Assembly (NCBI GenBank): GCA_017522105.1
Contig: JAFXAA010000017.1
Coordinates: 62,001 to 126,000, forward strand
From: Bacteroidales bacterium
GTDB taxonomy: Bacteria > Bacteroidota > Bacteroidia > Bacteroidales > P3
Length of the DNA: 64,000 nt
Direction: 5' to 3'
Position 1 is the stretch's first letter; each line of letters begins with the position of its first letter. Positions 25,986 to 41,588 of this stretch are shown piece by piece. The position numbers and the translations under genes are program-made. A model generated the notes under the pieces. That model searched no databases. It was not told the DNA's origin and saw nothing but the letters and a program-made list of their open reading frames with translations.

Positions 25986-26151
25986 TTCATCTTGCTTTCA
26001 AAATTGCAAAAATACACAAAAAAAACAAAACAGATGTGAACACACCGAAAAAAGGCATAAAAAGGCCTGAATTGCAGCGAAACATGCAATCCAGAAGAGG
26101 CTATAAACCAGCCTATTGCCAACACCGATTCTCGGCAGACTCAAGCCGTGC

Positions 26152-26250
26152 CTGCATCGGCACGGAGTCCCTACGGAGCCCCTACGGAGCCCCTACGGCC
26201 GTTCTTCAGTGGAACGCCGTCGGAAGACCGTCGGAAATCCGGATCGGCTC
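26152..26250. repeat. 11-nt-unit repeat element (E3)
   Basis: Three tandem copies of CCCTACGGAGY (about 26165-26199) are followed by CCGTTCTTCAGTGGAA, the same order as in the element at 48.1 kb. Here the right arm is degenerate (CCGTCGGAAGACCGTCGG-type units) rather than a clean complement, so this copy looks decayed. It occupies most of the 26-26.3 kb gap between recX and the uracil-DNA-glycosylase-like gene; the rest of that gap (26015-26150) shows nothing recognisable. Confidence 0.65.
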
Positions 26251-26301
26251 CGAAGCACCTCCGGACGGAATACCGACGACTCCCGTTACAGTTTTTTTTC
26301 C

Positions 26302-26309
26302 TATCTTTG
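26302..26309 (+). promoter_or_regulatory. -7 element upstream of the UDG-like gene
   Basis: TATCTTTG at 26302-26309 gives a leader of about 15 nt to the ATG at 26331 and rules out longer in-frame starts within the repeat. Confidence 0.65.
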
Positions 26310-26330
26310 CACCGCAAAAACAGCCACCCC

Positions 26331-26912
26331 ATGGACGCCCCGATAGAACGCCACCCCCTCGAACCCTTCCTGCCGCCGCAGGCGCGGCTGCTGATGCTCG
26401 GCAGCTTCCCGCCGCCGCGCCGCCGCTGGTGCATGGACTTCTTCTACCCCAACCGCACTAACCAGATGTGGCTCATCTTCGGCGCGGTGTTCTACGGCGA
26501 CAGCCAGCGGCTGGTGGACGACGCACACAAGACCTTCAGGCAGGCAGACATCGAGGCCCTGCTACGCGAGCGCGGCATAGCCATCTACGACACCGCCACC
26601 GCCGTGCGGCGCCTCAGCGGCAACGCCTCGGACAAGGACCTGCTGATAGTGGAGAAGACCGACATCGCAGCCCTGTTGGAGCGGATACCGCTGTGCCGCG
26701 ACATCGTGTGCACAGGCCAGAAGAGCTTCTCGGCCCTCACCGAGGCCTACGGCGTCGCCGTCCCCGCAATGGGCGGACACAACGAATTCACCATCGCCGG
26801 CCGCCCTATGCGCCTCTGGCGCATGCCCTCCTCTTCGCGCGCCTACCCCATGCCGCTGCAGGAGAAAGCCGACCACTACAGCCGCCTGATGCAGGCTGTA
26901 GGCATAATGTAA
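26331..26912 (+). CDS. Uracil-DNA glycosylase superfamily protein (mismatch-specific type)
   Basis: The 193-residue protein has the layout of small UDG-superfamily enzymes that excise uracil, or thymine opposite guanine. Its N-terminal ARLLMLGSFPPPRRRW matches the LGSxP active-site region. FFYPNRTNQMWLIFGAVF follows, and a C-terminal loop RMPSSSRAYPMPLQEKADHY corresponds to the minor-groove-reading LPSxS motif. GIAIYDTATAVRRLSGNASD lies between. The start at 26331 (MDAPIERHPLEPF) is set by the promoter. It is not co-transcribed with the next gene, which has its own promoter 10 bases after this stop. Exact substrate cannot be predicted. Confidence 0.85.
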   Translation: MDAPIERHPLEPFLPPQARLLMLGSFPPPRRRWCMDFFYPNRTNQMWLIFGAVFYGDSQRLVDDAHKTFRQADIEALLRERGIAIYDTATAVRRLSGNASDKDLLIVEKTDIAALLERIPLCRDIVCTGQKSFSALTEAYGVAVPAMGGHNEFTIAGRPMRLWRMPSSSRAYPMPLQEKADHYSRLMQAVGIM

Positions 26913-27883: not shown

Positions 27884-28481
27884 TCTCTAGGCAGCATGAA
27901 ACTCTTGCCTAACATTCATCGTAGGAATGTATAGCCATCCCCGATGAAGTCCGAAACAGGCGAGGCAGCCACCTTATTTGTTATGTAGATTGAATTGTAT
28001 TTTGTGATGCAAAAATACAATCAACAAAACCTATTGCACAAATATTACCTTTTTTATGCAATAGACGGTGTTTTTTGCACAAAACTGGCTTTGTATTTAC
28101 TTCAACAATTATGTAATGTAGTGACCTGACGGAGCGGCGAGAGCAGAACCGATGAACCAAAGGTCATGAGCACCGCTAAAGAAAGAACAATGTGGAGAAT
28201 AACGAAGCAGACGCAGAGCCAAGTTTACTTGAGTTATGCCTTGCAAGGAGGAGGAAAACGAAGTTAACGGAGCACGCACCAGGTATGCCGAGTCATGACG
28301 GAAGTGGACGAAGACAACAGCACCGCTGAATAAATATTAATCAAGCGAAAAACACATTCACATATTCACGCATTCTTTATGCCTTCTTCATGGTTACTTC
28401 GATCCTTCTTCGTGGGCTATTTATTTGGGGTCATCTCTTCTACCGCTTTGTGGTGGCATAAGGGAACCGAAAATACTATCC
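27884..28481. other. Non-coding entry into the AT-rich island, with repeats
   Basis: About 600 bases without a credible gene. Visible items: a hairpin-forming pair TTCATCG (about 27917)/CGATGAA (about 27941); a 23-nt sequence beginning AATTGTATTTTGTGATGC at 27993-28015 that recurs with two changes at 29964-29986; a purine-rich stretch (28120-28320) with no open frame; and the 57-nt direct repeat at 28319-28375. A 68-codon frame at 28379 is judged spurious. GC content drops markedly relative to the preceding operon. Confidence 0.6.
28319..28375. repeat. 57-nt direct repeat, left copy (contains 8-nt-unit array)
   Basis: Starts AGCACCGCTGAA, continues through a TAATCAAGCGAAAA-type segment, and ends with the 8-nt-unit array CACATTCA/CATATTCA/CGCATTC (28352-28375). 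The right copy at 29895-29951 is the same length. The two copies bracket the AAA+ ATPase gene. Confidence 0.75.
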
Positions 28482-29687
28482 TCAGTACAGAAAACCGAAA
28501 GCCCAAAGGGGTATCTTATGAGTTGTGGCGCTGTCTATATCGTCTGCGGCAACGTATGCATTTTCTTCGTCGGCAATTTGTTTGAAACCCTTGTCTTTCC
28601 CTCCAACCTCAATAATGACATCATTGTCGATGCGGAAGTCACCGCTTTTCAATCCACCATATTCCACTTTGTGACCTGCAGACACAAGTTGGTTGCAAAA
28701 GAAAGTCTCCCTGACTGTTCCAATCTCGGGTGCGGTGTCCGCCAAAGTGTACAACAAATTGCTATTGTCGAGCAATATTTTATCTGGTTTCTGAAGGTCG
28801 CTTATGCTGTCCACGTCTGTAAAAAGCCGTTGTATCAGGGCTGCCTCCTCAAGATTTTTCAGGTATTTGAGTGTAGTGGGACGCTGGATGCCAATATTTT
28901 TCGACAGCTTGGATATATCCACCTCGTAGGGAACCATTTGCGAAAGGACTTTCAACAATGCTTTGACTTTGCGACAGCTTCCCATTTCGATTCCACGAAA
29001 CCTTGTCAGTTCCGTGTCAATGGTGTAATTCACAACCGATTCAACGAGGTTCTGGTATATGGTTTGATTCTCGAAATAGAATGGATAGTAGCCCTCCTTC
29101 AGGTACCTGGAAAAAAATTCCAAGGGCTGACAGTATCGTTTCACCTCTCTGCAGAAAGCATTTGGTGCTTTCAGAATCTGGTCAAGCGAAACGCTCTTGA
29201 TGTCAATGATTCTGTTCATTGCAAGGAATTCGCGAAACGAAAGTCCCGGCATAGTGTATTGCACAAGCCGTCTTGACAGGTCTGCCTGACCATCGTTGAT
29301 TTGCAGCAACGATGAACCACTAACCACCAAGTGCAGGTCTCGATGAAGGTCGTATATCTCTTTCACCTCCCGACTCCAGCCATCGTATTTGTGCACTTCA
29401 TCTATGAATAGGTACCGGCCTCCACGCTTGTAGAACATGTCTGCGGTATCCACCAAGCTGTGGCTCGTGAAATAGGAGGTATCGGCCGAGCAGTAGAGTA
29501 CATGCCTGTCGTCGGGAGCAAAATGCTGCTTGATATACTGCTGCATCAGAGTTGATTTTCCGACACCTTTAGGACCTTTGATGGCAATCAGGCGTAAGTT
29601 CCAGTCGATATGTCCTGCCAGCCCTCTGACAAAGTCCATCGGAACCTTCTCCATATAATCATCGTGGCGCTCAAATAACTTATCCAT
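28482..29687 (-). CDS. AAA+ ATPase with DUF4143-type C-terminus
   Basis: The 401-residue protein belongs to the AAA_14/DUF4143 group of P-loop ATPases common in mobile regions of Bacteroidetes. Walker A is AIKGPKGVGKSTLMQQYI (near residue 40), Walker B RYLFIDEVHKYDGW, and the sensor region is LVVSGSSLLQ. The centre has a winged-helix-like segment (VDISKLSKNIGIQRPTTLK) and the C-terminus a PD-(D/E)xK-like fold (KVEYGGLKSGDFRIDNDVII-EVGGK). Function in the family is unproven; toxin-antitoxin or regulatory roles have been proposed. It is monocistronic with its own promoter and is flanked by direct repeats, suggesting movement as a cassette. Confidence 0.85.
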   Translation of the reverse strand: MDKLFERHDDYMEKVPMDFVRGLAGHIDWNLRLIAIKGPKGVGKSTLMQQYIKQHFAPDDRHVLYCSADTSYFTSHSLVDTADMFYKRGGRYLFIDEVHKYDGWSREVKEIYDLHRDLHLVVSGSSLLQINDGQADLSRRLVQYTMPGLSFREFLAMNRIIDIKSVSLDQILKAPNAFCREVKRYCQPLEFFSRYLKEGYYPFYFENQTIYQNLVESVVNYTIDTELTRFRGIEMGSCRKVKALLKVLSQMVPYEVDISKLSKNIGIQRPTTLKYLKNLEEAALIQRLFTDVDSISDLQKPDKILLDNSNLLYTLADTAPEIGTVRETFFCNQLVSAGHKVEYGGLKSGDFRIDNDVIIEVGGKDKGFKQIADEENAYVAADDIDSATTHKIPLWAFGFLY

Positions 29688-29894: not shown

Positions 29895-29951
29895 AGCACC
29901 ACTGAAATTAATCAAATCAAGCGAAAAACACATTCACACGTTCACGCATTC
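29895..29951. repeat. 57-nt direct repeat, right copy (contains 8-nt-unit array)
   Basis: Begins AGCACCACTGAA and ends with the 8-nt-unit array CACATTCA/CACGTTCA/CGCATTC (29928-29951). It matches the left copy at 28319-28375 in order, length and orientation. Confidence 0.75.
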
Positions 29952-30266
29952 TGCCTGACTCCCAATTGTATTTCGTGATACAAAAAATCCTTCGGCGATG
30001 GTTCGACGATAGTTCGGTGCTACCTATTCTAAATTTAATACAAGATTACATTATTTCTTGAATACGGCAAAATAAAATTCACAGAATCATAATATTTCCA
30101 CACGCCCTATAGACCCTTCGGCGATGCCACGGTAGTGTTTCGGGAAGATACTAACGCATTTACACATAAACACATTCACGCATTTTATACATGCCTTCTT
30201 CGTGGATTCTTTATGCAAAATCATTTTCTTTGTTGAAAAAAGCCTGTTTTTATGAAATAATATTCG

Positions 30267-30288: not shown

Positions 30289-31314
30289 ATGGAACTTATA
30301 GTACCACAATTATACAAATTCTTTGATAAGGTTGAAGGTGGAAAGATTGGACAAAATCTCTTTGATTTCATCAGAACCAGAGATGTGTGTTTCTTTAAAG
30401 ACAAATACGGTGAGACAAATATAAACATTTCTCAAATAAACTATTTATCAACCATATGCAAGAAGATGGTAGAGGATGGATTGTTGACAAATCTTAATCC
30501 GAGCAGTAATTCTCCAACTACTGACAAATATTTCGTTCAACTTAGGCCTGCAAACTTTGAGTATCCGGAACTGTTCGAGAAACAACTCGCATACGGATAT
30601 TATGATTTTGCGTACAACGGGTTCCCTTTTATTCGAGAACATTTTTTTGAATCTGTTGTTCCAATCGTCGGTATTAATAAGAAAGGCGATATTGATATCG
30701 GTACAGCTTACTATATTGGAGACAATATGTTTGTCACTGCAGCACATTGTGTGTTAGACCTATCACGATTTGCATTACAATATCAAGATGGTAATCAAAT
30801 AAAGGTATCATCGGTAATGCTTTCTGACAATAATAGTATTGACCTGGCCATTATCAAAGCCGATGAAGAAATTCGATTAACGCCATTTATGTTAGGTGAT
30901 CCTAATATACTGGATGAAATCCTTGTTATGGGCTATCCTCCTATTCCTGGTATGGATGCTGTTTTAATATCTGAAACGGGAAGTGTCTCTACTTTCATTC
31001 CACCTGCACAGAAAGCCTCTGCTGGGCAAGTCGTTGCTGAAACAAAATCATATTTACCCCCAATGGATTATTTTATGATTAATTGTCGGGTTAAAGGTGG
31101 CAATAGTGGAGGTCCGGTGATTAACAAGCATGGGTTGGTTGTTGGTACAGTAGTTTCCTTGGTCTATGATAGCCAAGGTGGCTCGAATGGCGGGCGTTAT
31201 GATATTATGGGGTTTGGAACATGCCTTTCGTCCAAATATATCCTCAACGTTCAACAGGACAGTGTTGCCCAAGAAGTTGAATTAAGCAATGGCTATTATT
31301 CCATCCTCAAATAA
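30289..31314 (+). CDS. Trypsin-like (S1-type) serine protease, cytoplasmic
   Basis: The 341-residue protein has no signal peptide. Its second half is a chymotrypsin-fold protease with a complete catalytic triad: His153 in FVTAAHCVLD, Asp185 in NSIDLAIIKAD, and Ser273 in KGGNSGGPVIN. GTAYYIGDNM opens the fold and GLVVGTVVSL follows the serine. The N-terminal 120 residues (INISQINYLSTICKKMVEDG) look like a helical or winged-helix domain I do not recognise. Intracellular trypsin-like proteases occur as effectors in several anti-phage systems. The gene converges on the GHKL gene with a 63-base gap. Base composition is strongly AT-rich relative to the chromosome. Confidence 0.85.
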   Translation: MELIVPQLYKFFDKVEGGKIGQNLFDFIRTRDVCFFKDKYGETNINISQINYLSTICKKMVEDGLLTNLNPSSNSPTTDKYFVQLRPANFEYPELFEKQLAYGYYDFAYNGFPFIREHFFESVVPIVGINKKGDIDIGTAYYIGDNMFVTAAHCVLDLSRFALQYQDGNQIKVSSVMLSDNNSIDLAIIKADEEIRLTPFMLGDPNILDEILVMGYPPIPGMDAVLISETGSVSTFIPPAQKASAGQVVAETKSYLPPMDYFMINCRVKGGNSGGPVINKHGLVVGTVVSLVYDSQGGSNGGRYDIMGFGTCLSSKYILNVQQDSVAQEVELSNGYYSILK

Positions 31315-31377
31315 TCAATTCTTTTTTTTCTTCTATTTCCTTTTTTTCAAAGTCCAAGCAGCTGCATGTGACTGCCA

Positions 31378-32619
31378 TTATTTTACTTCTGCGATAATTC
31401 GCTGAAGAACAGACCTGTGCAATAGCGCCTGTTGGGACTGATCCAAACCCTTTATTCTGATCAAGTTGTTAAATTGAAACAGGCCGAATTCTAAAAACAA
31501 TTTGGCTAATAATTCATCTGCGAAAGAAGAAGAAATAACTTCTATGCCACTAAAATCCAAAACAATTGGTTTTCTGGTTTCTGTAAGAATATTGTGTATT
31601 TCGTTTTTTACTCGCATGGCAGAGTCTCTTGTTCCAGTCCCCTCTGCGTGATCTTTAATCGAATAATGGACAATTCCATATTCATCTTCCAAATCTTCAA
31701 AATGAATATTTGTTAAAGAGTATTGTTTGCCTCTGAAGACCAATGCCTTGTCGATGGACATATCTTTTGAATAATTCAACTGAAAATCAACGATTGTCCC
31801 AGGGGTCTCTCGAGAAAAAACAGGCAAATGGTCATATACATTAACATTACCACTTGAGTAACTATAGGACCCACCTCCTGATGAAATCACCAATTTTCCC
31901 TGACCTTGTTTAACTATTGAATGTAATCCAAAAAGACCATTTCCTTGTCCAATCTTAGTATCCCTAGTCACTTCTTCTTGGATTGCCAATGTGATGGCAT
32001 CAACTGCCGTTTTGGGTTTATGGATGGAACTCTTTAATGAATTATATATTCCCTGCCCTGCATCAAAGACTGTAAATGCAATGTTTTGCGATGTGGAATG
32101 TATTTGCCCCATAACGCAACCAAATCCAATTTTTGAATGCTGAATTACATTATCCATAACTTCATTCAGAGACCATTCGATAACATTAAGAACGCCTTTG
32201 TAAAATTGGGCACTTTTTTGAAGTTCTTTAATATAAGCATTAACAAGTTCATTTACATCATCTGAAGATTGAAAGAACCAAACTTTGCCAAGAGCTTTTA
32301 CTTCTACTTTAGCATCATAATGGGTTGGCATAAAAATCTTTGTAGATTGTATCGCTCTAGAATATGAATCAAATTCAAATTTAATTCCTTTACTTTTATA
32401 ATGTTCGATTATTCCTGCTATAGGGGCAACTGCATTGGGGAATATAGCCTCCTCAACTCCAGAAAAATCCAGCAAAAAGTCGTCTACACCTTGATTTCTG
32501 CCAGATTCAATTGAGCGAATAAAATCAGATACGGAACGTGCTCGATTTAGTTTTTCGATGTAAACAATATCATTCTCTCGATAACATGTGGCCTCTCTAT
32601 TATTTTTCCAATATGACAT
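31378..32619 (-). CDS. GHKL-type ATPase with STAS-like (DUF4325-type) segments
   Basis: The 413-residue protein carries a GHKL ATP-binding domain: N-box SLNEVMDNVIQHS (Asn157 region), G1 FDAGQGIY, and G2 GQGNGLFGLHSI. It is bracketed by two STAS-like stretches with the same strand motif: FLLDFSGVEEAIFPNAVAP (about 48-66) and IVLDFSGIEVISSSFADEL (about 352-370); the second matches DUF4325. This resembles an anti-sigma/STAS switch compressed into one chain, but no partner kinase or sigma factor is adjacent. It has its own promoter yet continues the minus-strand run from the helicase. AT-rich composition marks it as acquired. Function unknown. Confidence 0.75.
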   Translation of the reverse strand: MSYWKNNREATCYRENDIVYIEKLNRARSVSDFIRSIESGRNQGVDDFLLDFSGVEEAIFPNAVAPIAGIIEHYKSKGIKFEFDSYSRAIQSTKIFMPTHYDAKVEVKALGKVWFFQSSDDVNELVNAYIKELQKSAQFYKGVLNVIEWSLNEVMDNVIQHSKIGFGCVMGQIHSTSQNIAFTVFDAGQGIYNSLKSSIHKPKTAVDAITLAIQEEVTRDTKIGQGNGLFGLHSIVKQGQGKLVISSGGGSYSYSSGNVNVYDHLPVFSRETPGTIVDFQLNYSKDMSIDKALVFRGKQYSLTNIHFEDLEDEYGIVHYSIKDHAEGTGTRDSAMRVKNEIHNILTETRKPIVLDFSGIEVISSSFADELLAKLFLEFGLFQFNNLIRIKGLDQSQQALLHRSVLQRIIAEVK

Positions 32620-32632
32620 ATTATTTTTTTTG

Positions 32633-32640
32633 CAAAGATA
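32633..32640 (-). promoter_or_regulatory. -7 element upstream of the GHKL gene
   Basis: TATCTTTG on the minus strand at 32633-32640, 14 bases before the ATG. No good -33 is visible. It implies the GHKL gene can be expressed independently of the upstream HEPN-methylase-helicase genes. Confidence 0.6.
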
Positions 32641-32750
32641 CGAGTTTTATGTGATTTGCAGCAGATTATTTTTCAACAGGGAATAAATGAGGGCACGTTT
32701 TGTGCCCTCATTGTTTTCGGATTTGATAGTTTTATAAACTATATTGCCCA

Positions 32751-33707
32751 TTAAGGATTTTCTTTGTGGATTGATCCGTTGAGATAATTCAAATAATCTC
32801 TATATTGTAATCGTACTTCACTTAATAATCCCTCATTGTATTGGTTCTTTTCCCGATATGCGAACAAAAGGTTTTGCTTGGAGTTTATAGGAAAAACATT
32901 ATCACTTGCGACCCTTAAATCCCGATATTCCTTCCATTTTTGTATGTATTCTAAGTTTGGATTATCTTTAGAGTAATGTTTATTATTGGAGGCATGACGA
33001 TAAATATCATCAAGAGCTTTTTCTGAAATGTCAAATGCTATCTGCGCTGCTCTAATATTATCGTCCAACTTCTCACTTATTTCTTTTTCTGACAAATTGT
33101 TTTTGAAAAAGAAAAAGTCTTTGTAGACGGAATTGATGATTGCATCATCTATAACATTTAACAATATGCCAATGTTTTGTATCCATAAACGAGCGTCTTT
33201 ATGTGTAATAGACACGCCAACTCCGGATTCATGACATAGTAGATGTCTGGTGTTAAATAGTCTATCAATATTATTTCTAAAATGCCCCCATGAATCATTA
33301 CCTAATTTTTCTCGACCGAGTTCATTAATATCAATGTCTGTTAAAAGCTGTATGTTGTTACATATTCCATTAAGATTATTGCAGCCAAATGAATATGCAA
33401 GTTGAATACTTAACGGTAGTCTTTCATACAGAAGTTGCTTATTGTATTCAATATCGACTTTTTTATGTTCTAACAATTCTTTTATTTTGTTATCTTGACG
33501 CAACAGTAATTCATATTTTCTTCGCAATACATCTTCTAAATATGCAACCAGCCGAATTGGTATTAATTCATAGACCATTTCATTGTTTGCTTTGTCGCAC
33601 AAATCCACCAAGTCACGCAAAAAAGAGCCTGAATTTCTTGTTGTAAGGCAGTTCCTGTTTAACGACTCTCTGATTTTGTCTTCAGGTATGTACTTTAATT
33701 TTGTCAT
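32751..33707 (-). CDS. HEPN-like protein of unknown function
   Basis: The 318-residue protein is largely helical and AT-rich in codon use. Residues 142-162 contain HFRNNIDRLFNTRHLLCHES, with R154-x4-H159, the R-x4-6-H pattern of HEPN domains, which are often metal-independent RNases in toxin and defence systems. The preceding segment (RLVAYLEDVLRRKYELLL) and following helix (DARLWIQNIGILLNVIDDAI) are compatible with that fold. The C-terminal third is charged and helical, without recognised motifs. It starts 26 bases after the methyltransferase stop, so co-transcription with methylase and helicase is likely. The HEPN call rests on one motif and context. Confidence 0.6.
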   Translation of the reverse strand: MTKLKYIPEDKIRESLNRNCLTTRNSGSFLRDLVDLCDKANNEMVYELIPIRLVAYLEDVLRRKYELLLRQDNKIKELLEHKKVDIEYNKQLLYERLPLSIQLAYSFGCNNLNGICNNIQLLTDIDINELGREKLGNDSWGHFRNNIDRLFNTRHLLCHESGVGVSITHKDARLWIQNIGILLNVIDDAIINSVYKDFFFFKNNLSEKEISEKLDDNIRAAQIAFDISEKALDDIYRHASNNKHYSKDNPNLEYIQKWKEYRDLRVASDNVFPINSKQNLLFAYREKNQYNEGLLSEVRLQYRDYLNYLNGSIHKENP

Positions 33708-33733
33708 ATATATTTAACGACATGTTAATCTAT

Positions 33734-36700
33734 TTATTGCTCAATTACAGCGATTTCTTCGGGGGTGAGGTTGTATAGTTGGTAGACTAATTTGTCTATT
33801 TCATATTCTAAAGATGAGGTGTCAGCGTTTGGGTTGGATTTCTTCTTCAAAAGAATTTGATTCACAAGTTCCACTACCGTATCTTGCCTTTCAAATGACA
33901 CCACCGGAATTGGTATTTCTTTTAGCTGATAAATCTTGATGTGCAAGCCTTCTGGAAAGATTTTCTTATGCCAAAATCTCACTGGCTTAGAGTTCAAAAG
34001 TCCAAGAACGTATTCAAACTTAAACTTATCATCTATAGCGAATATTAAATTTATTGTGTCATTGCACAAGTACATATTACTATCAATGGTAGCACAGATT
34101 TCTTGTGCTATATCTTGAATGAGGATTTTTTTCTTAACAAGGAAGTTTTCTAATTTTCTAGGACCGGCACCCACCTTTTCCATAAACAAATCAGGTCTAT
34201 ACCAAATCCATTCTTGACTCAATGGAGTGTTGTACCTCTGAATATTTCTTCCTCTTATCAATCTATAACTATCTTCAGGGAATGGACTATTGCTAATAAA
34301 TTTTTTATCGTTACTGGTTTTGATGCCTAAAGAGAATTCTGCAATATCGCCAAGCGCAACAACTTCTACTTTTGACATATCAATTCCATGTTCAAATGAA
34401 AAAGGATAATTGTCATATTGCATTATACTTTTGTATGTAAGTGAATGATCCATCTCGCAAAAAACAATTCCATCATAATTCTCCAAAATGATTGTATGGT
34501 TATTTGTTTTGGCTTTAGAGAACAAGATAATACACGTTTTTACTGTTGCATTCACGAACACTTTGTCTGGCAAATCAATCAACTTTATAACCTTTGTTTC
34601 ATTAACAAGAAATTTCCTAAATAAGGAGAAACTATCAGTTCCCAACCAACTATTTGAAAAAATAAAGGAGCATATTCCTCTCATCTTTAGTAACCCATGT
34701 GCTCTTTCCGTAAATATACTGTACAAATCGCACTTATTCTTAACTGTTTTATAGTTTCGCTGGTAAAACATTCTTGCGTAATCATCCGTCAAGTTTGCAA
34801 TGTTTATATACGGCGGATTACCAATAACTATATCGAATCCGCCGTTATCGAAGATGTCTTTGAACCAGGTGTGCCAGAGGAAGAAGTCTTGGTTGGCGGA
34901 GGGGTCGAGTTTGTCGAGGTCGGCGGCGGTGCCGCCGATAAAGTCTGTTATCAGGCGTTTGACTTCGTCGTTGATGGCTTGGCGCATACTGGCCTTCTGC
35001 TTGTGGTCGGTGACGGAGAAGTAGTCGCGCATCAGGCGTTGCAGGTTCTTCTTGCTGAAGTCGCTGTCCAAGCCCAGTAACAGCTGCGTGGACTTGCTTT
35101 GTCCGCCACGCAGGCGGTTGGAGATGCGGCTCAGGTCGATGCCCTTGTAGCTCTCGATAAGGCTGTTTCCCTGCATAAACTTGTAATCGAAGTTGGGGAG
35201 TGGCTCCGGCTCCTCGGCGTCCACCACGATGCTGAGCCAGAAGCGGAGGCGGGCGATGTCGATAGCACCCTTCTCGATGTCCACACCGTAGATGTTGTTC
35301 TCGATGATTTCTTTCTTGAGATTACTCCTGCTCGCTGCGCTCACGAAATCTTGTAAATCTTGTAAATTATTTGCTTCGCGGATTGCCAATGCCTCTCTAC
35401 AACGCCAGAGTTCGTTGAGGAGGCCCATCGGGAATGCGCCGGAGCCGATGGCGGGGTCACAGATCTTTACGTTGCGGAGGGCGGCATCCAGCGTGTCGCG
35501 GTAGGGCTCTAATTCTGACGGAAACTCATGTCGCTCAACAAAACTTCGGATTTGTTTATCGCAATCAGAATTGGCTTTATTGCAATCAGAATGAAAAGAA
35601 TTATCAGAATTTTCTTTTCGTTCGCTCATCAAGCTCGCGGGGCCAGCCACAGATTGAGACTTACCAATTTGAGAGACAAGGTAAGCGATAAGGCTCTCTT
35701 TGCACATATAGCGGACTATCTCCTTGGGAGTATAGAAGGCACCCTTGGCTTTGTTGTCCTCCAGCAGGCTCTCGAAGATTTTGCCCAGCATCTCGGGGTC
35801 GACACCCACTTCGGCATCGTCGGGGTCGTTCTCGTCGACGGTGAAGTTATAGGAGGCCATAACGGTGAACAAATCCTCAAAGAGCAAAGCCGGCAAAGTG
35901 ATATTCTGTTCATCGACAGCATCACGTTCAAAAAGTCCTCCGTTCAGATAGGGTAATTCTTTCCAGTCTTCCAACAAGCCCATATCCCAACCTTTCGCCT
36001 TAAACAGCAGCTCACGGTTGGCTTTCTCTGTGTTGAAGATACCAAAGAAAAGTGGCTCCAGCACCTGCTCGAGGAAGTCGCCTTGATGCGGACTGAAGAA
36101 GAATAGGTCGCGCAGGAAAGCTAGATTGCCATTCAGCCAGCCTTTCTTCTGCAGGAAATGCAGGAAGACAATGCGTCCCATCATCTTCTTCACGTAGTCA
36201 TGAATGGTAGCACCCTCAAAACCCTGCCGCTTCAACTCATTGATGATAATGTCGTAGTGGCGATGGTATTCATCGAAGAACTCCTTGCTGAGGGCATCAA
36301 CGGAGAAGGCCTCCCTGAGGTCGGACAACTTGAAACGGCCATTCTTCTCCGCCACCTTTCCCAATCGCTCAATCGGGGTTTTGTATTGTCCCTGCTCATC
36401 TCCCAGGATATACGAGAAGCGCTTGGCTGCGGTATTGCCCTCCTTGAGGTCGCAGATGTAGGAGAGTCGCCAATGATTCCCGTCGTCGAAGACGGCTATC
36501 GCTCCATCGACATCATATTTCAGGTAAGGCTGTATCAGTTTGCGCAACCCTACCCGCTTGCGGCGCACATCGCCGCCATCGGCTACACGGGTATAGAAGA
36601 AACCCAACAGACGACCGTCGGCATCTTCCATCTGACCGATGAAATAGCTCTTGTCGCCTTCGGCATTGGTGTCGAGCAATTCTGGCGTTGTGGCCACATC

Positions 36701-36793
36701 GTTGTTGCCAAATAGGCGGTGGACAATCTCGTTGCTATAGGTCTTATAGTCGAACGGGGATTTGAATATCTTGCGTAGGGTTTCGGGGTTCAT
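33734..36793 (-). CDS. Eco57I-type DNA methyltransferase with TaqI-like specificity region
   Basis: This 1019-residue protein is a class I SAM-dependent adenine methyltransferase of restriction systems. SAM motif I is ICDPAIGSGAFPMGLLNELW and catalytic motif IV IVIGNPPYINI; KGAFYTPKEIVRYM is the usual Eco57I pre-motif. The N-terminal 180 residues (SYFIGQMEDADGRLLGFFYT, AIAVFDDGNHWRLSYICDL) could be a degenerate nuclease-like domain; I see no clear catalytic triad. The C-terminal third (LGDIAEFSLGIKTSNDKKFI, YRLIRGRNIQRY, LKEIPIPV) is the target-recognition part. It is conspicuously AT-rich compared with the 5' part, the change falling just beyond motif IV. Two odd in-frame inserts flank motif I. 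It starts 8 bases after the helicase stop. Confidence 0.88.
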   Translation of the reverse strand: MNPETLRKIFKSPFDYKTYSNEIVHRLFGNNDVATTPELLDTNAEGDKSYFIGQMEDADGRLLGFFYTRVADGGDVRRKRVGLRKLIQPYLKYDVDGAIAVFDDGNHWRLSYICDLKEGNTAAKRFSYILGDEQGQYKTPIERLGKVAEKNGRFKLSDLREAFSVDALSKEFFDEYHRHYDIIINELKRQGFEGATIHDYVKKMMGRIVFLHFLQKKGWLNGNLAFLRDLFFFSPHQGDFLEQVLEPLFFGIFNTEKANRELLFKAKGWDMGLLEDWKELPYLNGGLFERDAVDEQNITLPALLFEDLFTVMASYNFTVDENDPDDAEVGVDPEMLGKIFESLLEDNKAKGAFYTPKEIVRYMCKESLIAYLVSQIGKSQSVAGPASLMSERKENSDNSFHSDCNKANSDCDKQIRSFVERHEFPSELEPYRDTLDAALRNVKICDPAIGSGAFPMGLLNELWRCREALAIREANNLQDLQDFVSAASRSNLKKEIIENNIYGVDIEKGAIDIARLRFWLSIVVDAEEPEPLPNFDYKFMQGNSLIESYKGIDLSRISNRLRGGQSKSTQLLLGLDSDFSKKNLQRLMRDYFSVTDHKQKASMRQAINDEVKRLITDFIGGTAADLDKLDPSANQDFFLWHTWFKDIFDNGGFDIVIGNPPYINIANLTDDYARMFYQRNYKTVKNKCDLYSIFTERAHGLLKMRGICSFIFSNSWLGTDSFSLFRKFLVNETKVIKLIDLPDKVFVNATVKTCIILFSKAKTNNHTIILENYDGIVFCEMDHSLTYKSIMQYDNYPFSFEHGIDMSKVEVVALGDIAEFSLGIKTSNDKKFISNSPFPEDSYRLIRGRNIQRYNTPLSQEWIWYRPDLFMEKVGAGPRKLENFLVKKKILIQDIAQEICATIDSNMYLCNDTINLIFAIDDKFKFEYVLGLLNSKPVRFWHKKIFPEGLHIKIYQLKEIPIPVVSFERQDTVVELVNQILLKKKSNPNADTSSLEYEIDKLVYQLYNLTPEEIAVIEQ
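35328..35368. repeat. Short tandem repeat inside the methyltransferase gene
   Basis: Contains AAATCTTGT repeated with period 9 (AAATCTTGTAAATCTTGT), next to the palindromic CTCGCTGCGCTCA. It encodes NNLQDLQDFVSAASRSNLKK between motif I and the downstream helix, a region where homologous methylases are usually compact. It looks like a small in-frame insertion. Confidence 0.55.
35553..35650. repeat. Repeat-containing insert inside the methyltransferase gene
   Basis: Two copies of TTTATYGCAATCAGAAT (about 35556-35572 and 35577-35592) are followed by AATTATCAGAATTTTC. On the minus strand this encodes a hydrophilic stretch with SERKENSDNSFHSDCNKANS, between the YTPKEIVRYM segment and motif I. It looks like an in-frame repeat insertion in a linker. 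Confidence 0.55.
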
Positions 36794-36801
36794 AATATTG
36801 C

Positions 36802-39800
36802 TTATTTGAATGTTTCAGAAAGGATGATGTCTGCGGTGGTGAGTGCAATCTGTTTGGTAGAGGTCTCAGTTTGCGGCTGTCCATAACGGCCGTCCAACTC
36901 TTCGAGCTGTTCCAAAATCTTAATCATGGGAACTGGCTCTTTCTTTTGTTTCTTCGACATACGGATAAGGGCGTCGGCCAACTGGTTGTAAGTTCCGCGT
37001 TCCACCAGCTGCTTCAGTCGGTCGAGGGTGTGGCGGCCTTCATCATCGAGCATTGGGCGTACCTCGCGCAGGAATGCAGCGGCTTTCTTGGCGTCATTGT
37101 CTTTGCTGCCAATCTTGGGTTTGTCGTCTTGATGCTCACGCTGCTGGTCGAGGGTGTATTGCTTCAAAGCTACCCGCACCTGCTCATAGTGGAGCGTCTC
37201 GCTGTCGTCAAACGACACAGCCTTCTCTTCAGGCTCAGCATAGAAGATATCAGCTGCCTCAAGGAAGGAAAGTTCTCGGATTGATTCGCCAACAAGATAG
37301 AAAGCCTTCTTGAAGTCTGAAGAAAGATAAGATATTGTGTTAATGTGAGAATGCGTTAATGTGTTAGTGTTTTTATTTCTTGCGCAGCGGCTTTTGGGCG
37401 GCAGCTGTTTGATTTTGCGGTAAAGGGCGGGATTGGTGTCGTGGAGGTGGCGCACCTCGCGTAGCAATTCCAAGCTGCGGTCGGTCTCGTCGCGCACGTC
37501 GGCGTTGAAGAGTTTGAATTCGTGTACCATCTCCTCGTGCGAGTAGATGCGGGTGTCCTCGCCGAGGGCGGAATGGAAACTCTGCAACTTGATGAGCGAG
37601 TTCTTCTTCAGGCTGATGATGGCATCGCCCGGGTCGGAGGGGTAGAACATATAGTTGTAGATGGCATCGGCGGTGGAACCGATACGGTTCACACGACCGA
37701 TGCGCTGCATCAGACGGGTGGCATTCCAAGGGCTGTCATAATTGACAATGACATTGGCGCGGTGCAGGTTGACACCTTCGGCCAGCACATCGGAGGTGAT
37801 GATGATATTGTAGTCGTTACGCCATTCTTTCTTGTATTTTGCATCGAAATTCGCCTGTATGGTCTCGCGCAGACGGTTGCGGTTCTTAGCGCAGACGGCA
37901 AGGATGTCGCTACGGTGCAGCCGTTCTTTCAGCTCCTTCTCCAGATAGTTGACGGTATCGACACTCTCGCTGAACACCACCAGCTTGCCTTCAAGATTTT
38001 TGCTTTTGTCGAAGAGTTCATCCTCCAGCATACTGACGAAGAGGTCCAATTTGGGGTCGGATTTCACCTTGTCCCATCGTTTGCAAAGCTTCTCCAATAC
38101 CTCGGCATCGTATTCCAGCATCGGAAGGAAATCAGGCTTGAAGTCGGCAGCACGGAACACAATCTTATTTTGTTCAAAGCCCTTGCCAATGGCCAGCTCG
38201 ATTATCTCGTCTAACTCCATTCCGTCGGCCTGCAGTTTCTTTACATTCAGCTCGGGAGCGATGATAACCTTGTCCTCGTTGAACATCTTGATCATGCCAT
38301 TGGTGGCATCAAGTAGCGTATGGAGAGAACGGCGGAAGGCGTCGAAGCTGCTCTCCAGACGTTTGACCATGTGGGTTTGGTAGATTCCGGCCAGCGAGTC
38401 GGCCATGTGTTTTGCTGTTTTGCCAGACGGAATCTTGTAAGACGGGCAATATTCTATGGCTCTGTATCGGGCATAGCGCAAGCCGCTGCCGTCGAACATC
38501 TCGGGGTTGTCATCCTTCAGGTTGGCGGTGGGCGTGTCCACCAGTTTCTTGTAGGTCTCGACGAAGAGCATCAGCGCCTCGGGCGACATCTGATAAGTAC
38601 GGTCGGTGGGGTCGAGCAGTTGGGGGAAATGGATCTCACCGGCATAGCGAGGTTCGTGCTGGATGTTGCTGCGTGTGCGTCGCACCATCACTTTCTCCAA
38701 CACAGTGTGGCGCATCTGCTGGTTGATGTCGTCGATATGGCTGGTGAGGTAATCGGCACTCAGTATGCGACGTTGCGACATGAGGCTCTTGAACTCCTTA
38801 ATCCACGGGGCAAAGGTGTCGGCGATATTGCTTATGCCGTCGAGTGTACAGCGGGCGGTATCTTGGAAGAGCAGCAACTGGTTTTTGATATCCTCGGGCG
38901 TGTTGTTGAGTGGGGTGGCAGAAAGTAGGAGAACCCGCTTGCCACCCTTGACATTGCCCTTGTTAAGACGTGCCGACTTGCAGATACGCTGCAACAGGTC
39001 GTAGTTGCCGTTGCTGTCGTGTCGGAAGTTGTGAGCCTCATCGACAATGATAAGGTCGTAGTATTCCTTCTCGTCGTAGCCGTCGCCATCAATGACCTTA
39101 TCAAGACTGCCGTTGGTGATGAAACGGCTGTATTTGTTCTTGATATGGAAGTCTGCAAAAGTGTCTTCCCAGTTGCTTTTAACTGCAGGTGGGAAGATAA
39201 CGAGGATGCGGGTGTTATCGCCATTGGCGGCGATGAAACGCTGCGCAATCATAGCGGCCACCACAGTCTTGCCCAAACCCACCACGTCGGCAATGAAACA
39301 GCCACCGTGTTTCATCATAATGTCGTAGCCCTGCACCACAGCGTCGCGCTGGTAGGTGAGGTTGTCGTAGTTGTCGGGCAGTTGTGGAATGAAATCATCC
39401 TCGACCTGGTTGCCGAAGTGGTCGATGAGCATACGCATATATAGCTCGTATGGAGTGGGTTGATGCTCTTGTGGCGCAAGATGGGTCTTCCCGACGATAT
39501 GGTTCACATCGTCCAACGTCACCGGAATGGCATCGTTCCAGAGTCGTTGAAACTCCTCTTCGCAGTAATGCACATCGTCGTAATCTTTCATGGCCACATT
39601 GAGCTCGTAGCGAGGCGGCTCGGTGGTGCCGAGGCCTTGGGCGCTGAGGTTGCTGCTACCCATAATAACCCAGCCGTCGCTGTGTTCACTGTGGTTCTTG
39701 GGCAGACAGAGGTAGAACTTGGCATGGAGGTCTTTGGTGGGGTGAATGCGCAGTTGCAGGCGCCCACTCGAAACATCTTCACAGAACTGACGGATGCCCT

Positions 39801-40119
39801 CATCCACCTCGGAGGAGTATTCCGACTGATATACGTCGCGAAGGAAATCCTCGCAGTATTGTTCAAGACTTACCTCCTTGTCGCCAAAGAAGAGCTTTCC
39901 AGCGGCTTGTGACTGACGAAAGAGATTGTCGATATTGATGCCGACAAGAATCTTGATTTCTTGTGTGGCATCCAATTCCTGTCGCAGTTTGAAGTATCCT
40001 GAAGAACGAAAATAGCCAACAACAGCATGGAATATGTCGAAGTTGGCCATTGCAGAGGCGATGCCGTGGAACTTGTCCATCAGCGTCGACTCGATATTGT
40101 TGAAAAACTTGGTGCTCAT
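36802..40119 (-). CDS. PLD-nuclease / SNF2-family helicase fusion
   Basis: About 1105 residues. The N-terminal 200 residues have a phospholipase-D-type nuclease domain (LHAKFYLCLP with H-x-K, then MGSSNLSAQGL). A SNF2/RapA-like helicase follows: motif I FIADVVGLGKTVVAA, II IIVDEAHNFRHD, III LLLSATPLNNTPED, and motif VI RLMQRIGRVNRIGS. Such fusions accompany DNA methyltransferases in restriction-like defence loci. An alternative start at 40152 would add 11 residues; ATG 40119 (MSTKFFNNIES) looks more natural. It is followed after 8 bases by the methyltransferase. Near residue 930 an in-frame 8-nt repeat array encodes NKNTNTLTHSHINTIS. DISARM splits PLD and SNF2 into separate proteins, unlike here. 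Confidence 0.86.
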   Translation of the reverse strand: MSTKFFNNIESTLMDKFHGIASAMANFDIFHAVVGYFRSSGYFKLRQELDATQEIKILVGINIDNLFRQSQAAGKLFFGDKEVSLEQYCEDFLRDVYQSEYSSEVDEGIRQFCEDVSSGRLQLRIHPTKDLHAKFYLCLPKNHSEHSDGWVIMGSSNLSAQGLGTTEPPRYELNVAMKDYDDVHYCEEEFQRLWNDAIPVTLDDVNHIVGKTHLAPQEHQPTPYELYMRMLIDHFGNQVEDDFIPQLPDNYDNLTYQRDAVVQGYDIMMKHGGCFIADVVGLGKTVVAAMIAQRFIAANGDNTRILVIFPPAVKSNWEDTFADFHIKNKYSRFITNGSLDKVIDGDGYDEKEYYDLIIVDEAHNFRHDSNGNYDLLQRICKSARLNKGNVKGGKRVLLLSATPLNNTPEDIKNQLLLFQDTARCTLDGISNIADTFAPWIKEFKSLMSQRRILSADYLTSHIDDINQQMRHTVLEKVMVRRTRSNIQHEPRYAGEIHFPQLLDPTDRTYQMSPEALMLFVETYKKLVDTPTANLKDDNPEMFDGSGLRYARYRAIEYCPSYKIPSGKTAKHMADSLAGIYQTHMVKRLESSFDAFRRSLHTLLDATNGMIKMFNEDKVIIAPELNVKKLQADGMELDEIIELAIGKGFEQNKIVFRAADFKPDFLPMLEYDAEVLEKLCKRWDKVKSDPKLDLFVSMLEDELFDKSKNLEGKLVVFSESVDTVNYLEKELKERLHRSDILAVCAKNRNRLRETIQANFDAKYKKEWRNDYNIIITSDVLAEGVNLHRANVIVNYDSPWNATRLMQRIGRVNRIGSTADAIYNYMFYPSDPGDAIISLKKNSLIKLQSFHSALGEDTRIYSHEEMVHEFKLFNADVRDETDRSLELLREVRHLHDTNPALYRKIKQLPPKSRCARNKNTNTLTHSHINTISYLSSDFKKAFYLVGESIRELSFLEAADIFYAEPEEKAVSFDDSETLHYEQVRVALKQYTLDQQREHQDDKPKIGSKDNDAKKAAAFLREVRPMLDDEGRHTLDRLKQLVERGTYNQLADALIRMSKKQKKEPVPMIKILEQLEELDGRYGQPQTETSTKQIALTTADIILSETFK
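37335..37370. repeat. 8-nt-unit repeat array inside the helicase gene
   Basis: Read on the coding strand: ACACTAACACATTAACGCAT followed by TCTCACATTAACACAA, i.e. units CACTAACA, CATTAACG, CATTCTCA, CATTAACA. The same unit family is found between genes at 28352, 29928, 30151 and 40388 and inside the DUF6266 gene. It encodes a Thr/Asn/His-rich tract without a stop. Confidence 0.7.
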
Positions 40120-40296: not shown

Positions 40297-40387
40297 ACTT
40301 GAAAAGCAAAAACGCTTCTAATTTATGTATTTGTTACTATTCTATTTCTCTGTTTCTATTCTGTTTTAGTTGTTGTTTTTATTGAAA

Positions 40388-40422
40388 CTAACGCATTAAC
40401 GCATTTGCACATTAACGCATTC
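40388..40422. repeat. 8-nt-unit repeat array (intergenic)
   Basis: Units TAACGCAT, TAACGCAT, TTGCACAT, TAACGCAT follow one another, then TCTTTTATGTTATTTC. The last part recurs at 40741-40762 (ACGCATTCTTTTATGTTATT then TC), in both cases directly next to a minus-strand TATCTTTG promoter element. Confidence 0.7.
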
Positions 40423-40442
40423 TTTTATGTTATTTCACGGTG

Positions 40443-40450
40443 CAAAGATA
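40443..40450 (-). promoter_or_regulatory. -7 element, probable promoter of the helicase operon
   Basis: TATCTTTG on the minus strand. Initiation near 40437 would give a leader of about 320 nt containing the 8-nt array and the long hairpin before the helicase ATG. No good -33 is seen. Confidence 0.55.
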
Positions 40451-40485
40451 CGAAATCTTTGCAATATTATTCTATTTCTTTTATT

Positions 40486-40799: not shown

Positions 40800-41588
40800 T
40801 CAATTATCTGAGCCAACTGTAATGGTGCCGATGAATACTGACGGCGACACTCGGCGGTTGATATTTCGGTGGCTCTTGTCGGCTTTTTTCTCGTCGGGCG
40901 AGAGGGTCGCGACGCAGGCGGTGTTGGCGGCCTCGACGATGGCATAGAGGTGATAATTGATTGTGTTATCGTGTGGATGTGTGAATGCGTTAGTCTGATT
41001 TACTTGTTTACTCCTTGACTCGTTCTTGCATTTTGATGCTATTTCCTCGCTGAGGTCGGGCAGGTCGAAAGCAACGCTGGCGGCTTGCCGTTCGGCACAG
41101 GCCACGAGTTGGCAGACCTCCACCTGGAACTCGACGGCATAGATGAAGACCACATCGTCGGGTTTGGCATAATCAAATCTGCTGCAAGGGTCGAACTGAA
41201 GCTCTACATGCAAACCGCCAACATGGCAACTGGTAAAATCCACGCGGGTTATCGGGCCGGTGGAGAGAATAAGACGTGGATAGTCGATATGCACCGTTCC
41301 TTCGGCGTAGGTGAAGCATTGCTTGTTGATTTTGGCGAACTCGTTGTTCTCGACATGCCCGTGGGCATGGGCCTCCTTGGCGAGGCCGCGCTGGATGACA
41401 GAGCCAAGGATGGAGGAGGTGTGCTGCATAGCCTTGAAGAGCGCACGCTGCCGCAACTGCGCCTCAGACTTGTTGTCGTTGAACGACTTGGCCTTGCTGC
41501 GGCTGAACTGCTTGCCAAAGCGGGTATAGTAGACACGGTCACCGATGGTGCCCGTCTGCTCAATGATGGACGGTTTGACCTTTGCCAT
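40800..41588 (-). CDS. DUF6266-family protein
   Basis: The 262-residue protein opens MAKVKPSIIEQTGTIGDRVY-YTRFGKQF and continues with the RQRALFKAMQHTSSILG helix, the pattern of Bacteroidetes DUF6266 proteins of unknown function, often in mobile regions. The body is beta-rich (VDFTSCHVGGLHVELQFDPC; DVVFIYAVEFQVEVCQLVAC). Near residue 200 a stretch QTNAFTHPHDNTINYHLYAI is encoded by an 8-nt-unit repeat array (40960-40998), apparently inserted in frame just before a predicted beta strand. It has no close operon partner; upstream are AT-rich short tandem repeats (GGGGAGCAAWA twice near 41708-41725). Confidence 0.75.
   Translation of the reverse strand: MAKVKPSIIEQTGTIGDRVYYTRFGKQFSRSKAKSFNDNKSEAQLRQRALFKAMQHTSSILGSVIQRGLAKEAHAHGHVENNEFAKINKQCFTYAEGTVHIDYPRLILSTGPITRVDFTSCHVGGLHVELQFDPCSRFDYAKPDDVVFIYAVEFQVEVCQLVACAERQAASVAFDLPDLSEEIASKCKNESRSKQVNQTNAFTHPHDNTINYHLYAIVEAANTACVATLSPDEKKADKSHRNINRRVSPSVFIGTITVGSDN
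40960..40998. repeat. 8-nt-unit repeat array inside the DUF6266 gene
   Basis: On the coding strand: CAGACTAACG, CATTCACA, CATCCACA, CGATAACA, CAATC. Same unit family as the arrays in the helicase gene and the intergenic regions. The reading frame stays open through it. Confidence 0.65.

What the first reader, a model, noticed from the sequence alone, without database searches (positions are those of the whole stretch)
30289..40119. Five-gene candidate defence locus: PLD-SNF2 helicase, Eco57I methylase, HEPN-like protein, GHKL/STAS protein, trypsin-like protease
Sequence: on the minus strand, helicase, methylase and HEPN-like genes are 8 and 26 bases apart and the GHKL gene follows after 131 bases; the protease gene converges with a 63-base gap. 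Known: methylase plus SNF2 helicase plus PLD nuclease are parts of DISARM, and HEPN domains and cytoplasmic trypsin-like proteases are effectors in various anti-phage systems. Inference: a restriction core (modification plus fused nuclease-helicase) with backup effectors that could act through abortive infection. The PLD-SNF2 fusion and the lack of drmA/drmB argue against ordinary DISARM. I do not recognise this gene set as a named system.
Basis: partly seen in the sequence, partly recalled or inferred. Interest (0 to 1): 0.78.

Follow-up and report, generated by a model that had tools for sequence, protein, structure and literature searches.

The report
Restriction system with swappable helper genes
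A bacterium carries a probable two-gene anti-virus core for marking and cutting DNA whose companion gene is exchanged for other likely weapons in related bacteria, so the proposed five-gene system is better read as a three-gene unit beside two unrelated genes.

Summary
The five genes and spacings are real, but they are not one five-gene system. The unit is three genes: a PLD-SNF2 helicase-nuclease, an Eco57I-type methylase with its own recognition domain, and P0003, a possible HEPN protein. Helicase plus methylase form a conserved core: the methylase follows the helicase in 36 of 39 fetched order-level loci, and the other 3 run into a contig end. All four close P0003 copies in 190 family genomes (own included) lie directly behind such a methylase, one on a core only 54/47% identical. 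The space in and behind the core is a cargo slot: 53 of 151 slot genes belong to families recurring on independent cores, against 12 of 150 upstream genes. Cargo is replaced at the same site under the same core and recognition domain. The GHKL gene (VapK/VapS-like) and the protease have their own promoter-like elements and no linkage to the core. Best reading: an RM-like first line with exchangeable second-line effectors, working like PrrC beside a type I RM system. This is a variant of a known kind. HEPN identity and all function are inferred.

The parts
36802..40119 (-). PLD-SNF2 helicase-nuclease, 1105 aa (P0005), first gene of the unit
   Evidence: PLDc_2, SNF2-rel_dom, Helicase_C; HxK at 132, GSSN at 154, GLGKT, DEAH, QRxGRxNR; 48 of 295 order genomes, own included, at E<=1e-40
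33734..36793 (-). Eco57I-type N6-adenine DNA methylase, 1019 aa (P0004), with C-terminal TaqI_C recognition domain
   Evidence: Eco57I, TaqI_C; DPAIGSG and NPPY; PDB sequence matches to TaqI, BseCI and BrxX methylases
33812..34693 (-). exchangeable recognition region of the methylase (about residues 701-994)
   Evidence: 15-32% identity in residues 701-1000 to L143, L145 and L146, whose helicases are 77-100% identical per 100-residue bin; 95-99% to L144 and L194
32751..33707 (-). P0003, 318 aa, possible HEPN protein, cargo directly behind the methylase
   Evidence: RHxxCHE invariant in 5 aligned sequences; 4 of 4 close copies in 190 family genomes directly behind a core methylase
32670..32752 (-). 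strong hairpin behind P0003, followed by UUUAUU: likely end of the three-gene transcript
   Evidence: -24.3 kcal/mol, z -5.25; not listed by the simple terminator scan; by eye intact in L194 and degraded in L195
32622..32676 (-). promoter-like leader conserved up to the start codon of whatever gene follows
   Evidence: DNA homology to L194 and L195 stops at 32617 and 32622, a 55-nt piece recurs in L144, and the next genes differ; its CGTATCTTTGCA part is generic in the window
31378..32619 (-). GHKL protein, 413 aa (P0002): STAS-like, GHKL, STAS-like (DUF4325), VapK/VapS-like; separate unit, not part of the system
   Evidence: DUF4325; profile hit to Escherichia VapS 9z7o, E 1.8e-4; AF2 model mean pLDDT 82; relatives without the core
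30289..31314 (+). trypsin-like serine protease, 341 aa (P0001), convergent; orphan
   Evidence: Trypsin_2; AAHC, DLAI, GNSGG motifs; promoter-like element at 30265
40441..40452 (-). promoter-like element about 320 bases upstream of the helicase start
   Evidence: CGTATCTTTGCA, exact match

Best explanation
A two-gene restriction-modification-like core with an exchangeable effector slot. The methylase, through its own TaqI_C recognition domain, marks host DNA. The PLD-SNF2 protein acts as a motor on unmarked invading DNA and cuts it with its PLD (HKD) nuclease. The gene in the slot (here P0003, possibly a HEPN RNase) is held silent by or near the core and acts as a second line, for instance by cleaving RNA and stopping growth, when the first line is blocked or overwhelmed. 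Recognition domain and cargo are exchanged between relatives, separately from each other. SHOWN by sequence: the conserved pair, the P0003-core linkage, cargo and recognition-domain exchange, motifs present. INFERRED: restriction, HEPN RNase activity, control of the cargo by the core.
For: Core: 39 of the 54 non-self helicase places were fetched; the methylase follows on the same strand in 36 and the other 3 (L106, L115, L129) end at a contig edge first; directly in 24, with one gene between in 12. All 11 further genus loci have it too. P0003: 4 of 190 family genomes (own included) at E<1e-100, all 4 directly behind the methylase (26-27 bases); in G416 P0003 is 83% identical while helicase and methylase are 54% and 47%. 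Same-site swaps: L194 (G391) shares flanks, core, recognition domain and P0003, but 1235-aa and 271-aa ORFs stand where the window has GHKL and protease; L144 (G317) shares flanks, core and recognition domain but has other cargo, with DUF2971, HNH-like and DUF4062-like genes. Recurrence: 53 of 151 slot genes against 12 of 150 upstream genes, Fisher p 4.9e-9; same strand only, 44 of 115 against 10 of 84, p 2.1e-5. Cargo domains above cut-off include Schlafen AlbA_2 with HATPase_c_4, RhuM, KilA-N, YhcG nuclease, HNH_2, RelA/SpoT, Roc-COR, PRTase-CE with ORC-CDC6-like, FRG and AbiJ_NTD4. Specificity exchange: two relatives carry silent TaqI_C pieces, inverted repeats and a serine recombinase.
Against: No function was tested. 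HEPN identity rests on one motif: the single-sequence AF2 model is unusable (pLDDT 37.7, all helical), the only HEPN family match is in a 20%-identical relative at E 0.014, below cut-off, that relative (L109) has no core in the 19.5 kb fetched, and R-x4-H occurs somewhere in 11 of 35 cargo and window proteins examined. Six of 26 testable loci have no co-directional gene within 200 bp behind the methylase, so cargo is not obligatory. Close relatives of P0003 were found in one genus only. Cargo families may recur partly because they are common defence genes; the upstream control meets this only in part, and some counted clusters hold two genes of one locus. 98 of 151 slot genes belong to families seen on one core group only.
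Confidence: 0.55

Rival explanations
1. A plain two-gene RM-like locus in a defence-rich, recombining region: the cargo genes, P0003 included, are independent defence or selfish genes that merely insert behind it.
For: Cargo is very diverse: 98 of 151 slot genes are in families seen on one core group only. The window's GHKL and protease are bystanders. Several cargos match single-gene defence candidates PDC-S31, -S32, -S33.
Against: Slot genes recur on independent cores well above the upstream control; 12 of 36 loci hold a gene between helicase and methylase and several cargos overlap core genes by a few bases; P0003 sits in the same position and orientation on a divergent core.
Confidence: 0.3
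2. A four- or five-gene system in which the GHKL kinase, as in VapKSC, senses single-stranded DNA and releases the P0003 RNase, with the protease as a further effector.
For: P0002 resembles VapK plus VapS in one chain and neighbours an RNase candidate, as VapK and VapS neighbour VapC (PMC13373217, abstract and passages). Section 7 of that paper reports capK-capS immediately downstream of a predicted R-M system in 88 of 443 cases. One other relative, L053, lies 79 bases behind an Eco57I-type methylase.
Against: P0003 occurs without P0002 in 3 of 3 other genus loci; P0002 relatives lack P0003 in 13 of 13 stretches; a hairpin and a promoter-like element divide them.
Confidence: 0.08
3. The core is a phase-variable epigenetic regulator rather than a defence system.
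For: Silent recognition cassettes with a serine recombinase in L094 and L120, and by annotation in a Prevotella nigrescens record.
Against: The window's PLD HxK and helicase motifs are present and a helicase homologue precedes the methylase at every such locus fetched; effector-like cargo.
Confidence: 0.07

Closest known systems
Type-2 BREX-related (BR) systems: HKD-SNF2 helicase, N6-methylase, DUF499, DUF3780 (PMC12839542; abstract, section 30, section 35 part 1 and passages read)
   Same: HKD nuclease at the N-terminus of an SNF2 helicase, N6-methylase, and backup effectors (HEPN, Schlafen, HNH) reported beside the core
   Different: DUF499 absent from 26 of 27 core genomes searched, this one included; no DUF3780 in the locus proteins scanned; two-gene core
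PrrI type Ic RM with the HEPN anticodon nuclease PrrC; HEPN genes linked to R-M systems (PMC3710099, passages read)
   Same: RM-like first line with a HEPN RNase candidate in the same locus
   Different: PrrC is an ABC-HEPN fusion beside hsdMSR; here a lone possible HEPN behind a PLD-SNF2/Eco57I pair, with other genes in its place in relatives
CglI/NgoAVII and SauUSI ATP-dependent restriction enzymes (PMC4267653, PMC5737866, PMC7913695; search listing only)
   Same: ATP-driven helicase-like motor with a nuclease; that the nuclease is of PLD type is recalled
   Different: gene layout as given in the listed abstracts differs (separate R and helicase proteins in CglI/NgoAVII); methylase type of those systems recalled to differ
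DISARM
   Same: DrmD-like SNF2 helicase (NF038317, 145.6 bits, cut-off 610) and an adenine methylase
   Different: far below the DrmD cut-off; no separate drmA or drmB gene seen in the locus
VapKSC and CapK/CapS (PMC13373217; abstract, section 7 and passages read)
   Same: P0002 has STAS-like, GHKL and DUF4325/VapS-like parts
   Different: one fused chain, no VapC beside it, no HTH match found

Membership tests
DISARM | DrmD helicase above the curated cut-off | tested here: not met
   145.6 bits, cut-off 610
DISARM | drmA and drmB in the locus | tested here: not met
   no separate drmA or drmB gene among the 6 proteins scanned. Partial DrmA-profile matches exist: P0002 to a GHKL/STAS stretch of one profile (1.2e-32), P0005 to the helicase part of another (4.2e-15). 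Only 25 of 83 and 25 of 47 families were shown for P0004 and P0005
Type-2 BREX-related system | HKD nuclease fused to SNF2 helicase | tested here: met
   PLDc_2 with SNF2 and Helicase_C in one chain
Type-2 BREX-related system | DUF499 ATPase in the locus | tested here: not met
   PF04465 in 1 of 27 core genomes (G094, on another contig), not in G000
Type-2 BREX-related system | stand-alone DUF3780 gene in the locus | tested here: not met
   no match in the 8 locus and flank proteins scanned against Pfam; not searched genome-wide
Restriction-modification with methylase-borne recognition domain and ATP-dependent nuclease | methylase motifs, recognition domain, nuclease and motor domains in one operon | tested here: met
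Restriction-modification with methylase-borne recognition domain and ATP-dependent nuclease | cuts unmodified and spares modified DNA | not testable with these tools
   needs methylome and restriction assays
HEPN superfamily (P0003) | R-x4-6-H motif, conserved | tested here: met
   invariant in P0003 and 4 relatives; the motif alone is common (11 of 35 proteins)
HEPN superfamily (P0003) | HEPN fold or significant HEPN profile match | tested here: inconclusive
   none for P0003; one relative E 0.014; AF2 pLDDT 37.7
PrrC-type guarded RM | HEPN effector in the RM operon | tested here: inconclusive
   operon position met, HEPN identity not proven
PrrC-type guarded RM | effector held inactive by the RM complex and released on its inhibition | not testable with these tools
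   needs bench work
VapKSC (P0002) | STAS-GHKL kinase and VapS-like STAS protein | tested here: inconclusive
   DUF4325 above cut-off, HATPase_c below cut-off, VapS 1.8e-4, good model but no fold search was accepted; here one chain
VapKSC (P0002) | adjacent VapC PIN nuclease | tested here: not met
   no PIN match among the 8 proteins scanned

The most novel reading that the evidence does not exclude
A sensor-and-socket immune platform: the PLD-SNF2/methylase pair is a general sensor of non-self DNA that licenses whatever effector cassette sits in the slot (HEPN, HNH, TIR, Schlafen kinase, RelA/SpoT-like and others). Specificity (recognition domain) and output (cargo) evolve as two separately exchangeable cassettes joined at conserved seams: the last ~25 codons of the methylase, and the leader before the next start codon.
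Probability: 0.3. Interest if true: 0.75.

Novelty: new variant of a known kind. Interest (0 to 1): 0.5.

Why it matters
Backup effectors beside R-M and BREX loci are already described (PMC3710099, PMC12839542). This locus and its relatives add a natural series in which core, recognition domain and effector change one at a time, in two cases at the same chromosomal site within one genus. That makes it directly testable whether R-M machinery controls the neighbouring effector: same core, different cargo. My paper searches (held open-access library only, ranked and capped lists) listed no paper whose title or abstract start describes this DUF499-free two-gene PLD-SNF2/Eco57I core with a cargo slot. 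I opened five of the listed papers, each only in part, so a description elsewhere is possible.

Tried and rejected
Five-gene unit: rejected by linkage tests of GHKL and protease. DISARM and Type-2 BR: rejected, defining parts missing. Empty-site comparison: 20 genus genomes were searched for pnp and for the 26148-26912 protein, 10 pnp regions were fetched; none holds the core, 8 of 10 reach 5 kb or more past pnp (L199 and L205 end sooner), and what follows pnp differs, so no clean empty site was found. P0003 in viral contigs and plasmids: no relatives. P0003 family against PDB sequences: nothing better than E 0.3. P0003 structure without alignment: unusable. Fold search for the good P0002 model was never accepted. 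The 8-nt repeat pattern by itself is not above chance in the window (5 found, 4.00 expected, 39 of 100 shuffles reach it).

Left out of counts: 15 of the 54 non-self helicase places were not fetched; about 40 of the 151 slot genes were given to Pfam.

Full report
WHAT IS THERE. The window lies in an unnamed 2.28 Mb draft genome (G000, contig 14, 92% complete), probably Bacteroidales: the closest named relative of P0002 is from Muribaculaceae. Pfam: PLDc_2, SNF2-rel_dom and Helicase_C for the first gene, Eco57I and TaqI_C for the second, nothing above cut-off for P0003, DUF4325 with a sub-cutoff HATPase_c for P0002, Trypsin_2 for P0001. PADLOC: best helicase hit C3a139 'HKD+Snf2' (5e-45), then DrmD (4.1e-34); P0002 matches part of one DrmA profile (1.2e-32), presumably because that profile contains a GHKL/STAS stretch. 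Sequence motifs of the enzymes are present.

THE CORE. The helicase has homologues at E<=1e-40 in 48 of 295 order genomes, own included, at 55 places. I fetched 39 of the 54 non-self places (L109 in the same call is a P0003 locus). Same-strand chains: methylase behind helicase in 36; the other three (L106, L115, L129) run into a contig end. Direct adjacency in 24, one gene between in 12. Behind the methylase 10 loci are cut off, 20 have a co-directional gene within 200 bp, 6 do not. Eleven more genus loci (nine from the relatives search, two from the P0003 search) also hold the pair, three of them with a gene between.

THE CARGO SLOT. Genes between the pair or within 4 kb behind it were clustered for 51 loci (window included; 42 core groups at 85% helicase identity). 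53 of 151 fall in 16 families seen on two or more groups, in 34 of the 43 loci that have any slot gene; for genes within 4 kb upstream it is 12 of 150 (6 families), in 10 of 46 loci; Fisher p 4.9e-9. Same strand only: 44 of 115 against 10 of 84, p 2.1e-5. Some clusters count two genes of one locus and genes of one locus are not independent, so the p values are approximate. About 40 of the 151 were given to Pfam. Above cut-off: DUF4062, RelA_SpoT, HNH_2, Roc with COR, AAA_23 (SMC-like), SLFN_AlbA_2 with HATPase_c_4, RhuM, KilA-N, YhcG_C, PRTase-CE, ORC-CDC6-like, NPHP3_N (with sub-cutoff NACHT and TIR), DUF2971, FRG, AbiJ_NTD4, KAP_NTPase. Ten had no match at E<=0.05 and others (MauJ, DUF5677) only sub-cutoff ones. 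PADLOC puts several among its phage-defence candidates (PDC-S31, S32, S33) or near PifA and SAVED-HNH effectors. A named example: a Parabacteroides distasonis plasmid with SNF2-related protein, N-6 methylase, hypothetical protein, TIR protein.

P0003. In 190 genomes of the family there are four hits at E<1e-100 (own, 99%, 83%, 56%) and one partial at 4.6e-4. All four lie 26-27 bases behind the methylase of a core. In G416 P0003 is 83% identical although helicase and methylase are 54% and 47%, which suggests that the cargo moved between cores. Order-wide there are two weak relatives among 294 other genomes; the better (L109) has no core in the 19.5 kb fetched. RHxxCHE is invariant in five sequences; R-x4-6-H is the conserved motif tabulated for HEPN domains in PMC3710099 (passages read). 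L090 and L092 cargo also carry an R-x4-H, but so do 11 of 35 proteins examined, so the motif alone is weak. Against: no family match, an unusable model. I put HEPN at about 0.65.

SWAPS. G391 (L194) and G317 (L144) share with the window pnp/DUF6266 on one side, the 27-kb flank on the other, the core, and the recognition domain (95-99% in methylase residues 701-1000), yet cargo differs. L194 keeps P0003 and has 1235-aa and 271-aa ORFs instead of GHKL and protease. L144 has a 248-aa gene, a DUF2971 gene, an HNH-like gene (71% to the HNH_2 gene of L100) and a DUF4062-like gene (29% to the DUF4062 gene of L091). G316, G304 and G296 (L143, L145, L146) have helicases 97, 93 and 90% identical, but a recognition region only 15-32% identical. 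DNA homology ends at the start codon of the gene after P0003 in L194 and L195, and 55 nt of that gene's leader recur before a different gene in L144; part of this is a promoter element common in the window. Two relatives (L094, L120) carry silent TaqI_C pieces, inverted repeats (314- and 48-nt arms) and a serine recombinase; a Prevotella nigrescens record is annotated alike, with an Mpi-family recombinase.

TRANSCRIPTION. CGTATCTTTGCA with up to one mismatch occurs 11 times in the window (0.21 expected), upstream of helicase, GHKL and protease, and not before methylase or P0003. A hairpin behind P0003 folds with z -5.25, though the simple scan did not list it and it looks degraded in L195. This fits a three-gene transcript.

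GHKL AND PROTEASE. P0002: 25 of 295 order genomes match at 1e-3 (own included), five others at E<=3e-51; in the genus 11 of 98 others match weakly in pieces. Thirteen distinct full-length relatives were examined (L052 is the G167 place again): none has helicase, P0003 or protease homologues in the stretch held, one (L053) has a divergent methylase; 10 of 13 had 5 kb or more upstream (strands). Of ten neighbours scanned, six are ordinary genes such as RF3, amylase, Omp85, acetate-kinase-like, lysine-type tRNA synthetase and S49 peptidase. The AF2 model is good (pLDDT 82); no fold search was accepted. The profile reaches Escherichia VapS (1.8e-4). VapK/VapS/VapC and CapK/CapS are described in PMC13373217 (abstract, section 7, passages). 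A kinase with its STAS substrate in one chain is inference. P0001: two distant order relatives; in the genus 18 other genomes match at 1e-6, 25-30% identical, probably HtrA-like proteases.

HOW IT LIKELY WORKS. The methylase marks the host; the PLD-SNF2 motor cuts unmarked DNA; P0003 is a second line. The precedent is PrrC beside the PrrI type Ic system, released when phage Stp blocks the enzyme (PMC3710099, passages). Shown: gene content, linkage, exchange. Inferred: all activities and the control of cargo by core.

PRIOR ART. HEPN next to R-M (PMC3710099), backup effectors across BREX and BR systems (PMC12839542), COG1743-DUF499-SNF2-nuclease loci (PMC7641849, passages), GHKL proteins in R-M loci (PMC2292703, passages). 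Hence a new variant of a known kind.

Noticed in passing
window 37318-37376, 40953-40997, 40384-40437, 30147-30184, 29913-29950, 28337-28374: Related repeats of 8-nt period lie between genes and also in frame inside the helicase and the DUF6266 ORF. The helicase insert is nearly identical in L143, a diverged same-length version in L147, and different or shorter or longer in the other six relatives aligned. A 10-nt core pattern alone is not above chance in the window.
   Followed up: partly
L094:9525-11971 and L120:5783-9849: Silent TaqI_C recognition cassettes on the opposite strand, inverted repeats and a serine recombinase behind the core methylase: a likely phase-variable specificity switch.
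   Followed up: partly
window 28482-29687: AAA_14/DUF4143 ATPase with PADLOC PDC-S01 matches; 39-40% relatives lie a few kb behind the core in L143 and L145.
   Followed up: no
L158/L169, L159/L170, L161/L172, L163/L171, L164/L174, L167/L173: Six genus genomes carry adjacent separate HATPase (frames of 220-269 aa) and DUF4325 (frames of 100-158 aa) matches, an unfused counterpart of P0002 reminiscent of CapK/CapS or VapK/VapS.
   Followed up: no
window 48345-58310: 3321-aa ORF on the minus strand with a signal-like N-terminus and a C-terminal end resembling a type IX secretion sorting domain (judged by eye and recall, not tested).
   Followed up: no
window 26148-26912: The first-look search with this protein gave 155 candidate places in genome G317 against 1-5 in the other 19 genomes, suggesting that part of the stretch is a dispersed repeat there.
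   Followed up: no
L053:6046-11242: A P0002 relative 79 bases behind a 1281-aa Eco57I-type methylase, the only one of 13 relatives with a P0004 homologue nearby.
   Followed up: no
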